Shown: one piece after another, positions 44,785 through 52,139 of the stretch
Layout: every line of letters begins with the position of its first letter
How positions within the stretch are numbered: position 1 is the first letter of the stretch
From: Bryobacter sp. CoA8 C33
GTDB taxonomy: Bacteria; Acidobacteriota; Terriglobia; Bryobacterales; Bryobacteraceae
DNA: 64,000 nucleotides
Reading direction: 5' to 3'
NCBI GenBank assembly: GCA_019931185.1
Contig: JAINDK010000018.1
Coordinates: forward strand, 62,001 to 126,000
Made by a program: the position numbers and the translations under genes
Notes under the pieces: model-generated
Databases searched by the model: none
Seen by the model: only the letters and a program-made list of their open reading frames with translations
Told to the model about the DNA's origin: nothing

Positions 44785-46053
44785 CTAGCGCGGGTTCTCC
44801 GCGCGTCCCCCCGCCGGCCTTGTCGTGCCGCTCAGTTTCACCACATCCGCGTCCCGCCCCGCCGGAATCGCAATTTCCATGAACCCGACGTTCATTTCTT
44901 CCCAACTTTGGTCACCCCAGTAAATTGTTTTTGTCGCGTCCGGATTGAAGCGATTGTTCGCCGAGTTATCAAACCAACCCGTGCACTGCAGCGTGTCCCC
45001 TTTTCTCAGTAGCAGTGGTTCCTTGAAAAAATATGTCGTCTGCCAGTTGAAGTCATAACGCGGCACATCCAGCAGCCTGCGAGTCCCGTTTAACTCGATT
45101 CGGTATGCCTTCCCCCGCAGGTGCATATGCGGCTGCATGCTGACCAGTTTCGCCTCATCGAGTAGTGTCGCCGATACTCTGGACTCATAATTCGCCTCCC
45201 CTGGCGGAATTACCAAATTGGCATCGGCAGGGGAAATCGTCAGTACTCGCTCCCGCGGTGCGCTCCGCGCAAAATACAAACCGAGTTCCGAGGAATCCCG
45301 CGTCGCCTTGCCATTTGCCGTGTAATGAATCTCAAAGACCATGTCCGACCCCGCCCGAATCAGCTTCGCCCGCCCGGCGCCCCATCCCTGCGGTTGATAA
45401 CCAGGCTCATAGCCCAACAGCAATTCCCGGCGGTCGATTTCTCTCTCCTCTGGCCGCCTTGCCGCCCGCTCTGCCCGCGAGGCGACATACAATTGTCCCA
45501 CCGGCGCCTCCCGCACATAGCTCGACCCCGGCGGCCTCACAAAAGCATTGATGTGGTGCACCACCTGCGTCTGATCGATCTTCCATTCCGCCGCCGCAAT
45601 CCAACGGTCCGTCTCGAAATTCAGCCGCGACACCAGAAAAGTGTATTGCAGCGTCCCCGCCGCCGGGATCTCCGCCGCCGGTATCCTCAGGATCAAATCC
45701 GGCGTGCCCAATTGCCAGCCTGCCGCTGCTCGTGGCGGAGTCAAGATGAAGTTCTGTTTAGATAGATCCGGCGAATCGAGCCAAGTCAGCAAAGTTTTTT
45801 TCTCCCCTTCCGTCAGCGCTCGTACCTGCGCCAGATGCTCCGAGGAAGCCTCATCCGCATGCCAGGGTGGCATCGTTCCTTTGCGGATCGACTGGCTCAT
45901 CGCCTTGGCCCAGGGCCGGATCGCACGCACGGAATCAAAGGCCATCGGTGCAATTCCTCCCGCCTGGTGGCAGGCCATACACCGGGCCTCGACGATCCGC
46001 GCACCCTCCGGCAAAACTCCCGCAACCAGCATAAATAGAACTGCTGTCACCAT
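44785..46053 (-). CDS. Cytochrome c / copper type-II monooxygenase-like fusion
   Basis: The 422-residue exported protein has a heme-binding CMACH at residues 25-29 in a short cytochrome domain (MPPWHADE follows). The rest, about 105-400, resembles the two-domain copper core of peptidylglycine and dopamine monooxygenases. The ligand order is kept: H166-H167 (VVHHINAF), H243 (FEIHYTANG), H309 and H311 (MQPHMHLRGK) and a Met near 387 (EEMNVGFME). Known enzymes hydroxylate C-H bonds using ascorbate; here the fused heme domain could be the electron donor. The substrate is unknown. Start ATG 46053 is preferred over TTG 46059. Confidence 0.85.
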   Translation of the reverse strand: MVTAVLFMLVAGVLPEGARIVEARCMACHQAGGIAPMAFDSVRAIRPWAKAMSQSIRKGTMPPWHADEASSEHLAQVRALTEGEKKTLLTWLDSPDLSKQNFILTPPRAAAGWQLGTPDLILRIPAAEIPAAGTLQYTFLVSRLNFETDRWIAAAEWKIDQTQVVHHINAFVRPPGSSYVREAPVGQLYVASRAERAARRPEEREIDRRELLLGYEPGYQPQGWGAGRAKLIRAGSDMVFEIHYTANGKATRDSSELGLYFARSAPRERVLTISPADANLVIPPGEANYESRVSATLLDEAKLVSMQPHMHLRGKAYRIELNGTRRLLDVPRYDFNWQTTYFFKEPLLLRKGDTLQCTGWFDNSANNRFNPDATKTIYWGDQSWEEMNVGFMEIAIPAGRDADVVKLSGTTRPAGGRAENPR

Positions 46054-46157
46054 GCCCAAACAATACCAGACTGTAACAGCGAAATGAATTTCATTCTGGA
46101 AATCAGCCCGAGGCTGTTGTACACTCTCTGGAGATTGATTCGTCCGGAGGTGTAAAC

Positions 46158-46200: not shown

Positions 46201-49200
46201 ATGACACGAACGAAAATGACCACGTGGTTGATAGGGCTCGTACTGAGTTGTGGTCTGGCCTTAGGCCAGGTTGCGACCGGTTCCTTGAGCGGAACGATAA
46301 CCGATGCCAACGGCGCTTCCGTGCCTGGCGCAAAGCTGGTAATCACCAGCAAGGATACCGGCACCAAGATCGAGGCGGCCAGTTCTGACGCCGGCCTCTA
46401 CGTTTTCCCTGCCGTGCCTGCTGGCGCTTGGACCCTCACGGCTGAAAAGAATGGCTTCAAGAAGCTGACTCGCTCGGGCATCGAAGTCCGCATCGCTCAA
46501 CGGCTTGACCTTGACCTGAAGCTGGAAGTCGGCGATGTCCAGCAAACAATCGAAGTTACGGCGGAGACGCCGCTTCTCGAAACCTCAACCAGCGACAAGA
46601 GCGCTGTTTTCTCCCCCAAGTTCATGAATGAAGTGCCCCTGTTCACAGGCGCTATCCGTAACCCCCGCAGTTTCATCAGCTATCTGCCCGGTGTCAATGC
46701 CGGTGCCGAACTGAGTGTCAGCGGCTCCGGTGGCCGCGCCCAGGAAGTGCAGATCGACGGCGCTTCGCTCATCATTCCCGAATCGGGCGGCACTGTCTTC
46801 AACATGCCTTCCGCCGAAATGTTCCAGGAATTCAAGATGACCACCGCGGCCTTCTCCGCCGAGTACGGCCGTTTCGGTGGCGGCGTGGAATCCTACGCCA
46901 CCAAGAGCGGCAGCAACTGGTTCCACGGCACTGCCTTCTTGAACATGCGCCGCGACATCTGGAACGCCAACGCCTGGGCCCGCAATGCGAGTACCAACCC
47001 GGCGACCAGCTTCCGTCCGAAAGAGCGCCAAAATGAAATCGGTGGCGCCGGCGGTGGCCCCGTCTACATCCCTAAGGTTTATGACGGCCGTAACAAGAGC
47101 TTTTTTTATTACACCTATACCCAGCGTCTGCTGCCCGCCAACATTAGTTTCCCGGTCAGCACTGTGCCAACGGCGCTGATGAAGCAGGGCAACTTCTCCC
47201 AGTTGGGCAACCAGCTCATCTATGACCCGGCCACCACCTCCGGTAATGACCGCCAGCCCTTCCCCGGCAACATCATTCCTCAGAGCCGATTCACTCGCGT
47301 TGCCCGTAACCTGATCCCACTGATTCCCGATCCCACAAGAGCCAGGGACGCAGCCGGTGGTCTGTATGACTTCGTAAACACGCAGGTCATCGACCAGAGT
47401 ATCTGGAGCATCAAGGCCGACCACAATTTCACCACGACGAACCGTCTAAGCTTCTTCCTCAGCCGGGAAGATGGTGGAAACTCGGATACAACGAATTTTG
47501 CCGGTCCGATCGGAAATGGTCTGGGCAGAAATACGCAGAAGCCTTACAACGTGCGTGTGAACCACGACTACAGCTTCTCTCCCGCTTTGTTCATGCACAC
47601 CACCTTCGGATATTCCGCGCAGCGGCAAGGCTGGGACAACCCTGCTCAGGCCGGAGCCGCTTCTCGCTTGGGGATCCCCGGTCTCAGTGGTCTTGCTGAC
47701 GCCATGCCGCGTATCCAGTTTCGCGGCCAGGCTGGCCTCACGCCCTATGGCGTTCAGGATGGCAAAGTGGGCCAGGGCGGTCAGGACAATGACACGCTCA
47801 TGATCACCCAGGGCTACACCTGGCTTAAGGGCAAGCATGAGATCAAGTTCGGCTGGGACTGGCGCGCACTCTCCACCTTTGGCTTCGACCTCGCCGGATC
47901 GAACGGTCTCTACATCTTCAACCGTCTCCAGACTGCCGTTCCGAACTCCTCTAGCGGTAGTGGGCACGAATTCGCCAGCCTTCTTCTGGGTGCGGTTCAG
48001 GAAGCGACCAGCACCGTGCTGCCGATCCTCCTCGACCAAGTCGAGTACCGCTACACCTCCGGTTACATCCAGGACAACTGGCGCATCTCCAAGAAACTCA
48101 CCCTGAATCTCGGTATGCGCTATGAAGTCCCCATCGGCTGGCACATCGGGAATGGCAATTTCTCTGGCTTTGATCCGACGAAGCCGAACCCCGGCGCGGG
48201 CAACCTTCCCGGTGCTCTCGTATTCTATGGCAACGGTCCGGGCCGCACCGGCCAGATTCGCCCCTACAAGACTGACTGGTCCAACATCGGCCCACGCCTT
48301 GGTTTTGCCTATCAATTGGGATCCAATACCGTGATTCGTGGCGGCTGGGGTATCTACTACCAGACCCTCGGCAACGGTGGCTGTGGCTGCCGTCAGGGTT
48401 TTGCCAACACCAACGCTCTTGTCAGCACAGACTCGAACCCCATCCTCAATTGGGACGGCGGCATTCCTGTTAGCTCCAATTTCCGTCCCCCGCCACTGCT
48501 CGATCCGACTTTGTCGAACTTCCAAAATATCGACTTTTTCCACCCGAACTACGGTCGTGCTCCTCGTATCTACAACTGGAACTTGAATATCCAGCACACC
48601 GTCAAGGGCTTCCTCCTCGATGTGGCTTATGTCGGCAACCGCGGCAATGGTCTGAACTCCACGATCAACCAGAACCAGTTGCCCGCCAGCGAGCTTGCCA
48701 AGGGTAGCCTCCTGACGCAGCCTGTTGCTTCCGCCACGGCTCAGGCAGCAGGCGTTCGTTTGCCCTACGCTGGCTTCCCCACCAATCGCACCGTCGCTCA
48801 GTCCCTGCGTCCTTATCCGCAGTATCTGGACGTCATCGGTCGCAACACCGGTCAAGGTCAGACCTGGTATGACAGCCTTCAGACCAAAGTGGAACGCCGC
48901 TTCGGTAACTTCCAGTTGCTCGCTTCCTACACTTGGTCGAAGTCGCTGGCCAACTCGCACTTCCGCCAGATCTTCAGCCAGCAGTTCAATATCGGTGCTC
49001 AGGATGCCTACAACCTCAAGGACATGAAGAGCTACAACCCGTTTGACCAGCCGCATGTTTTCAACGTTGTCTGGACCTACGACATGCCCTTCGGCAAAGG
49101 TAAGAAGTTCCTCGGCACCTCGCCCCTGCTGGTCAACCGGCTGGTCAGTGGCTGGGTTGTCAGCGGCGCCCAGCGTTACTACTCGGGTAACCTGATCCAG

Positions 49201-49677
49201 ATCGTCACTCCGGGTAACCCGCTTGGCCAGATCTTGTTCTCCACGGCTACCAAGGCCGTCCGGAACAACGTCGATATCCGTACCGGTGCCAGCTATGGTG
49301 ACCTCGATCCGAACAACCCGAATGTCCGTTGGCTTGCGCCGCGATCCTTTTCTTCTGCCGCTGCGTTCACGCTTGGTGACGCCGCTCTCTACCACGGTGA
49401 CTTCCGGCAACCAGCTATCGCATTCGAAAACATCGGTATCTCTAAGCAGACAGTTCTCTGGCAAAATGAAAAAAACCCTGTTATTTTGTCCTACCGAGCT
49501 GATGCCTTCAACCTTTTTAACCGAACCCGGTTCGGTGGTGTGAATGGAGTGATTTCAGACATCCAAACAGTCACACCGGACAACCCATTTGGCTATGGCA
49601 ATCGAGCCTTTGGCCGTCCCACCGGTCCTCAGGTTGGCGCCCGCGCGATCACCATGGGCCTGCGTCTCACCTTCTAA
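46201..49677 (+). CDS. Oar-like TonB-dependent receptor (4)
   Basis: The 1158-residue protein has a leader (about 1-23: TTWLIGLVLSCGLALGQ), a carboxypeptidase-regulatory-like domain (TGSLSGTITDANGASVPGAK), a plug (QTIEVTAETPLLETSTSDKS, VQIDGASLIIPESGG) and a long barrel ending ITMGLRLTF. AGAGGTG lies just before ATG 46201. The plug lacks the ELPLNGRN motif of receptors 2 and 3 and reads NEVPLFTGAIRNPRSF instead, so it belongs to another subgroup. It is divergent from the cytochrome/copper monooxygenase gene and ends at a strong terminator. Confidence 0.94.
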   Translation: MTRTKMTTWLIGLVLSCGLALGQVATGSLSGTITDANGASVPGAKLVITSKDTGTKIEAASSDAGLYVFPAVPAGAWTLTAEKNGFKKLTRSGIEVRIAQRLDLDLKLEVGDVQQTIEVTAETPLLETSTSDKSAVFSPKFMNEVPLFTGAIRNPRSFISYLPGVNAGAELSVSGSGGRAQEVQIDGASLIIPESGGTVFNMPSAEMFQEFKMTTAAFSAEYGRFGGGVESYATKSGSNWFHGTAFLNMRRDIWNANAWARNASTNPATSFRPKERQNEIGGAGGGPVYIPKVYDGRNKSFFYYTYTQRLLPANISFPVSTVPTALMKQGNFSQLGNQLIYDPATTSGNDRQPFPGNIIPQSRFTRVARNLIPLIPDPTRARDAAGGLYDFVNTQVIDQSIWSIKADHNFTTTNRLSFFLSREDGGNSDTTNFAGPIGNGLGRNTQKPYNVRVNHDYSFSPALFMHTTFGYSAQRQGWDNPAQAGAASRLGIPGLSGLADAMPRIQFRGQAGLTPYGVQDGKVGQGGQDNDTLMITQGYTWLKGKHEIKFGWDWRALSTFGFDLAGSNGLYIFNRLQTAVPNSSSGSGHEFASLLLGAVQEATSTVLPILLDQVEYRYTSGYIQDNWRISKKLTLNLGMRYEVPIGWHIGNGNFSGFDPTKPNPGAGNLPGALVFYGNGPGRTGQIRPYKTDWSNIGPRLGFAYQLGSNTVIRGGWGIYYQTLGNGGCGCRQGFANTNALVSTDSNPILNWDGGIPVSSNFRPPPLLDPTLSNFQNIDFFHPNYGRAPRIYNWNLNIQHTVKGFLLDVAYVGNRGNGLNSTINQNQLPASELAKGSLLTQPVASATAQAAGVRLPYAGFPTNRTVAQSLRPYPQYLDVIGRNTGQGQTWYDSLQTKVERRFGNFQLLASYTWSKSLANSHFRQIFSQQFNIGAQDAYNLKDMKSYNPFDQPHVFNVVWTYDMPFGKGKKFLGTSPLLVNRLVSGWVVSGAQRYYSGNLIQIVTPGNPLGQILFSTATKAVRNNVDIRTGASYGDLDPNNPNVRWLAPRSFSSAAAFTLGDAALYHGDFRQPAIAFENIGISKQTVLWQNEKNPVILSYRADAFNLFNRTRFGGVNGVISDIQTVTPDNPFGYGNRAFGRPTGPQVGARAITMGLRLTF

Positions 49678-49700: not shown

Positions 49701-49735
49701 GGGGCTCATCCTTCGGGATGAGCCCCTTTCTTTTT
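49701..49735 (+). terminator. Intrinsic terminator of TonB receptor 4 (TTCG loop)
   Basis: An 11-bp perfect stem (ggggctcatcc at 49701-49711 and ggatgagcccc at 49716-49726) with loop TTCG is followed by TTTCTTTTT. It lies 24 bp after the receptor stop. Confidence 0.93.
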
Positions 49736-52052
49736 ACCGGATTGCCATCGTCACTCCGCTCTGCGAATCCACGCCTCCGATATTGACCAATACCGGCACC
49801 GCCGCCCCCGTCGGCGCGCTGCTCGGCACGGTTACATTTACCTGCAACAAGCCTGGAACACTCCCCGGGGGTGACACCGCTCCAGCGACACTCGCGGCAA
49901 TACCGCCAATCGTCACACTGACACTCGCCGATGGTGTCACCGCAGGAGTGGCCGGAATCAGATTGGAGGCCGCCGTCCCTGGCGCAAGCAGTGACGCATT
50001 CGTTGTCCCAATCCCATTCACGTACAAAACCACGATGCCTCCTTTGGTCGCCGCACTTGCGTTTGAGTTCAACGAATAGTCACCCGTCGTCGCATTGAAA
50101 TTCAGAATCGCTCCCTGTCCCCGGCCGGATGCATCCGTCGTATAGACGCCCGGTGTAGTCGGCGCTACTGCCAGTGTGAACGGCTGTGAACTCAACCCGT
50201 TGTAGCTCAGGAGCAAATCCGCCGACGCTCCAGAGATGTTGTAAGGGACAATCACGCTCACCTGTTTGGCACTGGTGTACAAAACCGGTGCCGCGACCCC
50301 GCCGATTGTGACTGAGGTAGCTGGTCCTGTTGCTGGCAGCACATTCGGTATTTGCGGCGCCGGCACGGCTGGATTGAACAGGGTCAGGCTCGCCGGTCCT
50401 AGCCCCAGACCGAAGATCGTAATAATCTGCCCCGGAGAAATTGTCCCCTGGTTGTAGCTGGCCGAATCGACCACGGCATTCACTTGTGGCCGTGGCCCGA
50501 ATACTTGAAATTGAGCCTCCGAGGAAGTTCCGCCACCCGGGTTTGGTGTCGAGACTGCCATCCGCAGATAACCTGGAGTCAGAAGAAACGAAGCCGGGAC
50601 CGTCACCAGCATCGCATTCTCCCCGGCTTGCCTTGCCGTCAGCGGCCCCTGTAGGCCTGTTGTACTCGGAGTCCCCGCCAGCACTCCGGTTGAGGAGTTG
50701 ATCGTCATGCCGGTGGGAAGTGCTTGCGCTGACCAGGTCAAGGTGCTACCCACGGCCGCGCCCAAGGCCACCGCTGCGTTACCGCCTGCGTAAGCGCTAC
50801 CCATCGTACCCGCTGCAAGAGCATTGGTTGGCCCGGCGATCCGCAAGGAACTGATCGTTGCCGGCAGAATATTCATTTTGAAGTGCATGTAGCTGATAGA
50901 ACTTACCGGACTCGTTGAGTCCTCTAATTCCAGCGTGAAAAAATACGTCCCCGCCGCCGTCGGTGTCCCCTGTAGTTGGGCGCCGCTCAAGCTTACTCCC
51001 GGGGGCAGTTGCCCGCTTCGCAGCCGCCAGGTGTACGGCGCCGTTCCTCCCACGGCTGTCAGCGGAATCGGCGCCAGCGCCAGGCTGACCCTCCCTCCGG
51101 GTAGGGGCGAACCCATCGGGATTCTTAGCCCTGTTGCCGTATTCGTATAAACCGGAATGAAGAAACTCTCCGTCGTCGTGGATGTTCCATCGGTGACCGT
51201 GATCGTTGACTCAGCGGTGAACCCAGTAGCCGATACCGTTGAGTTCGAGAAGTAATTCTCCCCGTACAAGGTCACAAAACTTTGCGCCGATTGCTGAATC
51301 ACGCCCAACGGCCAGGTGCTGAAAACATTCGGCGGCGCAGCCACCACATTCAACGTCACCGGTAGTGTGATCTGCGGATTCGAAGCACCCGTTGAGCGAA
51401 TCGTCACACTGGCCGTATAGCTACGCGGTGCAAGCCCCGTCGGGTCTACTGATACCGTAATTGAATTCAATAGCCCAGCCAGTGTGATATTTCCTGTCGG
51501 GCTTACCCGCAGCCAAGGCGCCCCCTGTACTGCCAGCGTCGCCGCCGTCGCCGCTCCTGTATTCGAAAGAATGAAGGTACTCGTCAGAGCCGGATTACCC
51601 GTCACCGGCAACCCGGTCGTGTATTGAAACGTCAACGACGTAGGGGACAGGGTAATCGCCGGCGGCGGCGTACCCACCACCAGTGTTACTGCCACAGCCG
51701 TCGTCGGTGGCGGTGTCCCTGTCGTTCCCGTGATCGTGATCGTCCCGGTATAGGTGCCCGCCGCCAGCCCCGTTGGATTTACCTGCACGCTGACGGTCTG
51801 CGGCGCCCGCCCGCTCTGTGCCGAAACCAACAGCCATCCCGCAAAATGAGGTGCCGGCCCACTGATCGCTACCGTAAAGCTCGCCCCTGCCGGCGCGCTC
51901 TGCACGTTCACATTTTGTGCCTGTGGTAACGTTGTCGATCCCACTGTCGCCTGAAAACGTAGCGTGCTTGCGTTCGTCGACAAAGTTTGCGAATACGACG
52001 GCATGAGAACACAGCCGAAAAGAAGAGAAAGAAGATAGGGGCGCGAGGACAT
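49734..52052 (-). CDS. Exported Ig-like repeat protein with Solibacter C-terminal domain (TIGR03437-like)
   Basis: The 772-residue protein has a signal peptide (MSSRPYLLSLLFGCVLMPSY), several beta-sandwich repeats with the BACON-like pattern (STLRFQATVGSTTLPQAQNV, SPTSLTFQYTTGLPVTGNPA), putative Ig domains (APYTWRLRSGQLPPGVSLSG) and a C-terminal region typical of TIGR03437 (ISPGQIITIFGLGLGP, VTIGGVAAPVLYTSAKQVSV, LQVNVTVPSSAPTGAAVPV). That domain is known almost only from Solibacter and relatives. It is probably a cell-surface or secreted adhesion protein. Start ATG 52052 has GAGGGAG eight bases upstream; GTG 52058 is an alternative. Confidence 0.9.
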   Translation of the reverse strand: MSSRPYLLSLLFGCVLMPSYSQTLSTNASTLRFQATVGSTTLPQAQNVNVQSAPAGASFTVAISGPAPHFAGWLLVSAQSGRAPQTVSVQVNPTGLAAGTYTGTITITGTTGTPPPTTAVAVTLVVGTPPPAITLSPTSLTFQYTTGLPVTGNPALTSTFILSNTGAATAATLAVQGAPWLRVSPTGNITLAGLLNSITVSVDPTGLAPRSYTASVTIRSTGASNPQITLPVTLNVVAAPPNVFSTWPLGVIQQSAQSFVTLYGENYFSNSTVSATGFTAESTITVTDGTSTTTESFFIPVYTNTATGLRIPMGSPLPGGRVSLALAPIPLTAVGGTAPYTWRLRSGQLPPGVSLSGAQLQGTPTAAGTYFFTLELEDSTSPVSSISYMHFKMNILPATISSLRIAGPTNALAAGTMGSAYAGGNAAVALGAAVGSTLTWSAQALPTGMTINSSTGVLAGTPSTTGLQGPLTARQAGENAMLVTVPASFLLTPGYLRMAVSTPNPGGGTSSEAQFQVFGPRPQVNAVVDSASYNQGTISPGQIITIFGLGLGPASLTLFNPAVPAPQIPNVLPATGPATSVTIGGVAAPVLYTSAKQVSVIVPYNISGASADLLLSYNGLSSQPFTLAVAPTTPGVYTTDASGRGQGAILNFNATTGDYSLNSNASAATKGGIVVLYVNGIGTTNASLLAPGTAASNLIPATPAVTPSASVSVTIGGIAASVAGAVSPPGSVPGLLQVNVTVPSSAPTGAAVPVLVNIGGVDSQSGVTMAIR

Positions 52053-52139
52053 AAACACTACTCCCTCGATCTATCGACAAGTAAGTGATTCACTGCATTG
52101 ACCCAAAGCATTTTGAAGGAATACCCCCGGTAGCATAAA

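What the first reader, a model, noticed from the sequence alone, without database searches (positions are those of the whole stretch)
44785..46053. Heme c domain fused to a complete copper monooxygenase ligand set
CxxCH near the N-terminus is followed by HH, H, HxH and M in the same order as in peptidylglycine/dopamine monooxygenases. A fused heme donor could replace ascorbate, which would be new chemistry for the fold in an exported bacterial protein. It is divergent from TonB receptor 4.
Basis: partly seen in the sequence, partly recalled or inferred. Interest (0 to 1): 0.5.

Follow-up and report, generated by a model that had tools for sequence, protein, structure and literature searches.

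The report
Heme-wired bacterial copper monooxygenase relative
This bacterial protein joins a heme electron carrier to the two-copper core of the animal enzymes that make amidated peptide hormones and noradrenaline, which suggests that some environmental bacteria power this kind of oxygen chemistry from a built-in heme instead of vitamin C.

Summary
The 424-aa minus-strand ORF (44785-46059) has a CxxCH heme c domain followed by all six copper ligands of PHM/DBH in order. A family profile finds rat PHM (E 9e-5) with the six ligands aligned. AlphaFold2 (pLDDT 91.9, pTM 0.89) gives the PHM/DBH core (Z about 23; next fold, PNGase F, 8.9). It belongs to a large bacterial family: CxxCH, the likely axial Met and six copper ligands are intact in 227 of 236 aligned sequences (six of the nine exceptions truncated), then 70 of 70 more. 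Five paralogues, two of them outside those counts, have changed copper ligands; all five keep the heme. In a heme-blind Pfam search, 67 of 68 fetched hits carry the heme in the same ORF; one is cut off. Two covarying residue pairs link the heme loops to the stretch before the CuH histidines and to the loop of PHM's Gln272, suggesting that the heme packs beside CuH. PHM's peptide-carboxylate residues are not kept. Most likely it is a periplasmic O2-dependent hydroxylase whose tethered heme, rather than ascorbate, reduces CuH. Catalysis and substrate are untested; without coordinates, copper geometry and heme-copper distance were not measured. I found no publication or NCBIfam model describing it.

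The parts
44785..46059 (-). whole ORF, 424 aa, heme c - PHM-like dicopper protein (TTG start; in-frame ATG at 46053)
46009..46059 (-). short hydrophobic N-terminus, probable signal peptide (residues 1-17; inferred)
   Evidence: sequence; similar hydrophobic N-termini in L004-L006
45724..46011 (-). cytochrome c domain (residues 17-112; end inferred)
   Evidence: Pfam Cytochrome_CBB3 17-79; helices 18-26, 44-60, 84-94 in the model
45967..45981 (-). CxxCH heme attachment C27-M-A-C30-H31
   Evidence: invariant in 106/106 and 70/70
45862..45873 (-). M63-P-P-W, probable distal heme ligand Met63
   Evidence: invariant in 106/106; ligand role inferred
45229..45708 (-). CuH subdomain (about residues 118-277; boundary inferred)
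   Evidence: structural alignment to PHM over 118-412; profile alignment
45553..45558 (-). CuH ligands H168-H169 (= PHM H107, H108)
45325..45327 (-). CuH ligand H245 (= PHM H172)
44824..45228 (-). CuM subdomain (about residues 278-412; boundary inferred)
45121..45129 (-). CuM ligands H311-x-H313 (= PHM H242, H244)
44893..44895 (-). CuM ligand M389 (= PHM M314)
45037..45045 (-). W339-Q340-T341 loop; Q340 aligns with PHM Q272; position 341 covaries with position 67 beside the heme Met loop

Best explanation
An exported (periplasmic or outer-membrane-facing) dicopper monooxygenase of the PHM/DBH fold with its own electron feed. The N-terminal c-type heme takes single electrons from the respiratory chain or a soluble cytochrome and passes them to CuH (H168, H169, H245). 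CuH passes them across the intercopper gap to CuM (H311, H313, M389), where O2 is activated and a substrate C-H is hydroxylated. Shown by tools: the heme motif, the six ligands, the predicted fold and near-strict co-conservation. Supported but not proven: the heme packs next to CuH (covariation). Inferred from PHM/DBH chemistry: electron flow, O2 activation, hydroxylation and ascorbate independence. The substrate is unknown and is probably not a glycine-extended peptide; several paralogues per genome suggest a range of substrates.
For: Profile-to-PDB match to rat PHM (E 9e-5) with all six ligands in register. AF2 pLDDT 91.9, pTM 0.89; Foldseek PHM E 4.6e-15; VIA Z 23.0 to 1phm (2.8 A over 263 residues) and 23.7 to DBH, PNGase F 8.9. 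Heme and copper ligands all intact: 106/106; 54/56 in weaker homologues from related genomes; 227/236 in the union; 70/70 in further sequences. Heme-blind Pfam PF03712 search: heme set in the same ORF in 67 of 68 fetched hits (hits). Interdomain covariation: 67-341 (z 9.3; 11.7 with more sequences) and 35-164 (z 7.4; 6.2 with more sequences), against a maximum of 5.5 in 12 shuffles within clades; 0-1 of 1000 clade shuffles reach the observed mutual information of these two pairs. Residue 164 lies four before H168, and pair 35/164 is acid/base in 110 of 241. Q340 (225/227) aligns with PHM Q272, which shares a water network with Q170, the peptide substrate and CuH ligand H108 (PMC6123673, passages). 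CuH is regarded as the electron-transfer site in PHM/DBH (PMC4846438, passages). The host genome has three Cytochrom_C_asm matches.
Against: No biochemical evidence of any kind. Model coordinates were not given, so neither the two copper sites nor the heme-CuH distance was measured. The query alone scores below Pfam's cut-off for Cu2_monoox_C, and only 1 of 74 members matches the N-terminal Cu2_monooxygen model. The covarying pairs were picked after ranking; part of the 67-341 signal is clade-level (it still scores 3.9-4.2 in four of the 12 shuffles); pair 68-335 is not above the finest clade null; in the combined set 95-290 overtakes 35-164; the 70 extra sequences alone give noise; the window protein itself has G35/T164, not a salt bridge. 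No conserved partner gene points to a substrate. Five paralogues keep the heme but have changed copper ligands: L123, L164, L184, and L092 and L181, which my length filter had left out of the counts and which keep all three CuH histidines but no CuM ligand. So the heme does not always go with an intact CuM.
Confidence: 0.68

Rival explanations
1. Heme-fed dicopper protein that reduces O2, a peroxide or a nitrogen oxide, or oxidises a substrate and passes electrons to the heme (reverse flow), rather than hydroxylating C-H bonds.
For: Ligand conservation and covariation fit either direction of electron flow. Tethered heme c - copper electron transfer is known from heme-c copper nitrite reductases (recalled); the only phmmer hit of the query in the PDB, a probable nitrite reductase (2zoo), aligns only over the heme stretch and at E 0.93. 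In 5 of 6 larger homologues scanned an AhpC-TSA/Redoxin domain is fused in front, which could point to peroxide or thiol chemistry.
Against: The copper core is PHM/DBH, not a cupredoxin, and the full ligand set, with the CuM His2Met site that binds O2 in PHM, is kept in 227 of 236 and 70 of 70 aligned sequences.
Confidence: 0.15
2. Ordinary small-reductant (ascorbate-like) monooxygenase in which the cytochrome domain is only a docking, sensing or structural module.
For: DBH works with ascorbate and carries an N-terminal DOMON domain in which no heme site was found (PMC4846438, passages).
Against: CxxCH and Met63 are at least as strictly kept as the copper ligands, and the two strongest covarying interdomain pairs of the first analysis lie next to the heme motifs and on the CuH side.
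Confidence: 0.1
3. Copper-binding, storage or sensing protein without catalysis that has kept the PHM fold.
For: Five paralogues keep the heme and have changed copper ligands (L092, L123, L164, L181, L184).
Against: Invariance of E388, W339, Q340, Y343, N365 and N372 beyond the ligands in 106 of 106 suggests a selected active site; copper storage would not need a heme.
Confidence: 0.05
4. Chance pattern of His and Met residues without copper sites.
For: The query alone is below Pfam's cut-off for the copper domain and single-sequence phmmer finds no PHM in the PDB.
Against: Profile, fold and conservation results.
Confidence: 0.01

Closest known systems
Peptidylglycine alpha-hydroxylating monooxygenase (PHM; rat 1phm, 1opm, 1sdw)
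   Same: Two-domain copper core, all six ligands in register, Z about 23; Gln272 kept as Q340 (225/227) and the Gln170 position mostly Gln (153/227).
   Different: N-terminal heme c domain; residues aligned with R240, N316 and Y318 (peptide carboxylate binding, recalled) are not kept together; only one Cys outside the heme site in the window protein, so no PHM-type disulfides (disulfides recalled); 16% identity in the structural alignment.
Dopamine beta-hydroxylase (4zel)
   Same: Same copper core, Z 23.7; also carries an extra N-terminal domain.
   Different: DBH's extra domain is a DOMON beta-sandwich without a visible heme site and its electrons come from ascorbate (PMC4846438, passages); here it is a helical cytochrome c.
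Heme-c copper nitrite reductases (e.g. 2zoo)
   Same: Tethered c-type heme beside a copper enzyme; analogous electron wiring (recalled).
   Different: Copper core is a cupredoxin nitrite reductase (recalled); only the heme stretch aligns, near the C-terminus of that chain, at E 0.93.
Cellobiose dehydrogenase cytochrome feeding LPMO copper (recalled)
   Same: A heme domain supplies electrons to a copper oxygenase.
   Different: Separate proteins, b-type heme, single copper; recalled, not tested.

Membership tests
PHM/DBH copper type II monooxygenases | Six copper ligands HH, H (CuH) and HxH, M (CuM) in order | tested here: met
PHM/DBH copper type II monooxygenases | PHM double jelly-roll fold | tested here: met
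   AF2 pLDDT 91.9; Z 23.0 to 1phm, 23.7 to 4zel_A, next fold 8.9; predicted, not solved
PHM/DBH copper type II monooxygenases | Pfam Cu2_monoox_C (PF03712) above curated cut-off | tested here: inconclusive
   20.3 bits against 23 for the protein alone; 23.1 with its neighbours in the frame; 38 of 74 members at E<=1e-3
PHM/DBH copper type II monooxygenases | Pfam Cu2_monooxygen N-terminal domain (PF01082) | tested here: not met
   no match in the query; 1 of 74 members
PHM/DBH copper type II monooxygenases | The two copper sites assembled in three dimensions | not testable with these tools
   no coordinates of the model were returned
PHM/DBH copper type II monooxygenases | O2-dependent hydroxylation | not testable with these tools
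   needs purified protein
Peptide-amidating PHM (PAM) | R240, N316, Y318 for the peptide carboxylate (roles recalled) | tested here: not met
   aligned positions: 309 variable (Q in the window), 391 mostly I/L/V (V), 393 F/Y/W (F)
Dopamine beta-hydroxylase | N-terminal DOMON domain | tested here: not met
   no DOMON match in the query at E<=1; cytochrome c instead
c-type cytochrome domain | CxxCH with Cytochrome_CBB3 profile above cut-off | tested here: met
   31.5 bits against 27; invariant CxxCH and Met63

The most novel reading that the evidence does not exclude
A widespread, expanded bacterial branch of the PHM/DBH fold in which a tethered heme c replaced ascorbate and wires copper oxygen chemistry to the respiratory chain. 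Many paralogues hydroxylate different, non-peptide-carboxylate substrates outside the cytoplasm. In this branch the heme-fed form is the rule.
Probability: 0.55. Interest if true: 0.78.

Novelty: new variant of a known kind. Interest (0 to 1): 0.6.

Why it matters
How electrons reach CuH in PHM and DBH, and how they cross the 11 A gap to CuM, is an old question in copper biochemistry. A natural enzyme with a covalently attached, spectroscopically visible heme beside CuH would let electron delivery be followed directly. It would also add a large group of unassigned, probably O2-using enzymes to Acidobacteriota, Planctomycetota and other environmental phyla; single genomes gave up to 13 matches in the phylum sample (pieces of one gene can count apart). 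No NCBIfam model matches any of 74 members, so that library gives them no curated name.

Tried and rejected
Conserved operon: neighbours were clustered over 31 of the fetched loci. The receptor gene and the Ig-repeat gene stand beside it together only in the three closest relatives (L004-L006); relatives of the receptor also lie in L026 and L048, and of the Ig-repeat gene in L016 and L020. No neighbour family occurs in more than 5 of the 31 loci, so there is no substrate hint.

Plasmid-borne copies, to read annotators' names: none found.

Single-sequence search of the PDB: no PHM; the profile was needed.

Coupling analysis on the 70 additional sequences alone: noise (effective number 54.5); kept only as part of the combined set. 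Pair 68-335 dropped as evidence because 670 of 1000 of the finest clade shuffles reach it.

Rows left out before the ligand counts: 40 ORFs (duplicates, partial or cytochrome-only), 10 partial ORFs, 5. I looked again at 25 matching ORFs from these and neighbouring loci: two near-complete ones, L092 and L181, keep the heme motif, Met63 and the three CuH histidines but lack all CuM ligands; nearly all of the rest are cut or split and show the ligands that their stretch covers.

Literature: ten searches of the open PMC library returned no listing that describes a cytochrome c - PHM fusion; one search listed only 20 of 3,837 papers. Subscription papers and preprints are not held, so absence is not proof. 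I saw search listings for all; I read passages in PMC8812541, PMC6123673 and PMC4846438.

Full report
What is there. The ORF at window 44785-46059 (minus strand, 424 aa) starts with TTG at 46059 or the in-frame ATG at 46053. A short hydrophobic N-terminus leads into a cytochrome c domain with C27-x-x-C30-H31 and M63-P-P-W, then a region with HH (168-169), H (245), HxH (311-313) and M (389). Pfam recognises Cytochrome_CBB3 (2.2e-7) and, below its cut-off, Cu2_monoox_C (4.2e-4, 20.3 bits against 23). The gene lies convergent with a prephenate dehydratase gene and divergent from an outer-membrane receptor gene.

Is it more than chance? From one genome-collection scan (197 relatives, 80 loci kept) and searches of the own genome and of 61 genomes, own included, 106 non-identical sequences that span the protein were aligned; 40 further ORFs were left out as duplicates, partial or cytochrome-only. 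All ten residues (CxxCH, M63, six copper ligands) are identical in 106 of 106, and in 74 of 74 sequences below 80% identity. Some of the scan's seed patterns contained ligands, so I also took 60 stretches from the weaker rows: 56 proteins span the family, 54 with all ten residues; 10 partial ORFs were left out. The union of these and of the Pfam-found set below gives 227 of 236. Six of the nine exceptions are truncated; three (L123, L164, L184) have truly changed copper ligands and keep CxxCH and the Met. A further 70 sequences are 70 of 70 (5 partial ORFs left out; 65 of the 70 are under 80% identical to the earlier set).

The length filter hid some exceptions. Among the ORFs left out, L092 (own genome) and L181 (a relative in the same family) keep the heme motif, Met63 and all three CuH histidines but have lost every CuM ligand. 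So at least five paralogues in this sample have changed copper ligands, and all five keep the heme.

Is the heme always there? I searched with Pfam PF03712, which knows nothing of the heme: the own genome (3 matches), 199 Acidobacteriota (7 with a match at 1e-6), 7 genomes reached through loci (5), 199 genomes of the phylum of Stieleria, Planctomycetota (39 with a match at 1e-4), 68 of the phylum of L061, whose record title says Rhodothermaeota (12) and 299 of the phylum of a Pseudomonadales MAG (1). None of 14 control genomes matched. DNA was fetched for 68 of the 86 distinct hits listed. In 67 of these 68 the heme set is in the same ORF as the copper domain; the remaining hit (L253) is missing its N-terminal part near a contig edge, and its neighbour in the same locus is complete. 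One of the 67 (L184) has Thr in place of the CuM Met. So among the hits examined in these phyla, a PHM-like copper domain clearly without a heme c domain was not seen.

Fold. A profile of the 74-sequence alignment matches rat PHM in the PDB at E 9e-5, with H107, H108, H172, H242, H244 and M314 opposite the six ligands. AlphaFold2 on the same alignment gives pLDDT 91.9 and pTM 0.89. Foldseek's top matches are PHM (E 4.6e-15) and DBH. VIA-align gives Z 23.0 for 1phm (2.8 A over 263 residues) and 23.7 for DBH, against 8.9 for PNGase F, the next fold. The model's coordinates are not in reach of my scripts, so copper geometry and heme-copper distance remain unmeasured.

Where does the heme sit? I used covariation. 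Mean-field couplings over 230 sequences recover pairs expected from the predicted structure: between cytochrome helices (19-89, 26-86) and between paired strands (323-355, 318-362), a sign that the signal is real. The two strongest interdomain pairs are 67-341 (z 9.3, rank 3 of all) and 35-164 (z 7.4, rank 9). In six 70% subsamples, 67-341 is among the six best interdomain pairs in all six and 35-164 in four. In 12 shuffles of the cytochrome part within clades no interdomain pair exceeded 5.5, though 67-341 itself still scored 3.9-4.2 in four of them, so part of its signal is clade-level. With 300 sequences the two pairs score 11.7 and 6.2, and a third, 95-290, comes between them at 6.8; the 70 new sequences alone give noise. 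In 241 sequences thinned to 80% identity, 0-1 of 1000 clade-preserving permutations reach the mutual information of 67-341 and 35-164, at three clade depths; 68-335 is not above the finest null. Residue 35 follows the heme attachment site; residue 164 is four before the CuH histidines, and the pair is acid/base in 110 of 241. Residue 67 follows the heme Met loop; residue 341 is next to Q340, the equivalent of PHM Gln272, which shares a water network with Gln170, the substrate and the CuH ligand His108 (PMC6123673, passages). This puts the heme near CuH, regarded as the electron-transfer site (PMC4846438, passages). The pairs were chosen after ranking, and the window protein itself carries G35/T164.

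Function. The best reading is a periplasmic heme-fed dicopper monooxygenase: donor cytochrome -> heme c -> CuH -> CuM/O2 -> C-H hydroxylation. The peptide-carboxylate residues of PHM (R240, N316, Y318; roles recalled) are not kept, so amidation of peptides is unlikely. The host genome has c-type cytochrome assembly genes (three Cytochrom_C_asm matches). Its own genome holds several paralogues. In the phylum sample 41 of 199 genomes have the family, with up to 13 matches in one genome, pieces of one gene counted apart. Five of six larger homologues scanned, from Planctomycetota, Pseudomonadales and others, add an N-terminal AhpC-TSA/Redoxin domain. Substrates remain unknown, and the gene neighbourhood does not help.

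Novelty. Pfam holds both halves, so the combination is visible in databases, but none of 74 members matches a curated NCBIfam model, and ten searches of the open literature returned no listing that describes it (listed under Tried and rejected). [quoted passage not shown] I rate it a new variant of a known kind: the PHM/DBH core with a different, built-in electron donor.

Noticed in passing
L092 (own genome contig C71, 405-aa ORF) and L181 (relative G035, 421-aa ORF): Two paralogues keep the heme motif, Met63 and the three CuH histidines but have lost the HxH and Met of CuM: natural forms that may carry heme and CuH without CuM.
   Followed up: partly
L085, L104, L110, L114, L117 next to the main gene: A neighbouring stop-to-stop frame of about 235-300 aa has the same type of cytochrome c domain plus a weak match to part of the copper-binding C-terminal domain, with no ligand seen in the aligned part (for L085, L104, L110 and L114; table for L117); possible partner or decayed copy.
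   Followed up: partly
L089 (own genome contig C30); also L054, L137, L140, L179, L195: Some copies are split over two overlapping frames between or within the heme domain and the copper core: frameshifts, assembly errors or separated pairs.
   Followed up: no
L042, L080, L082, L060, L067: These larger homologues carry an N-terminal AhpC-TSA/Redoxin domain (5 of 6 scanned; L070 does not), and L042 and L082 have C-terminal EF-hands.
   Followed up: partly
L260: The single Pseudomonadota-sample hit of the Pfam search scores highest of all Pfam hits listed (8.5e-15) and still carries the heme c domain.
   Followed up: no
window 46201-49677 and 49734-52058: A CarboxypepD_reg/outer-membrane beta-barrel receptor and an Ig-repeat protein stand beside this gene in the three closest relatives too.
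   Followed up: partly
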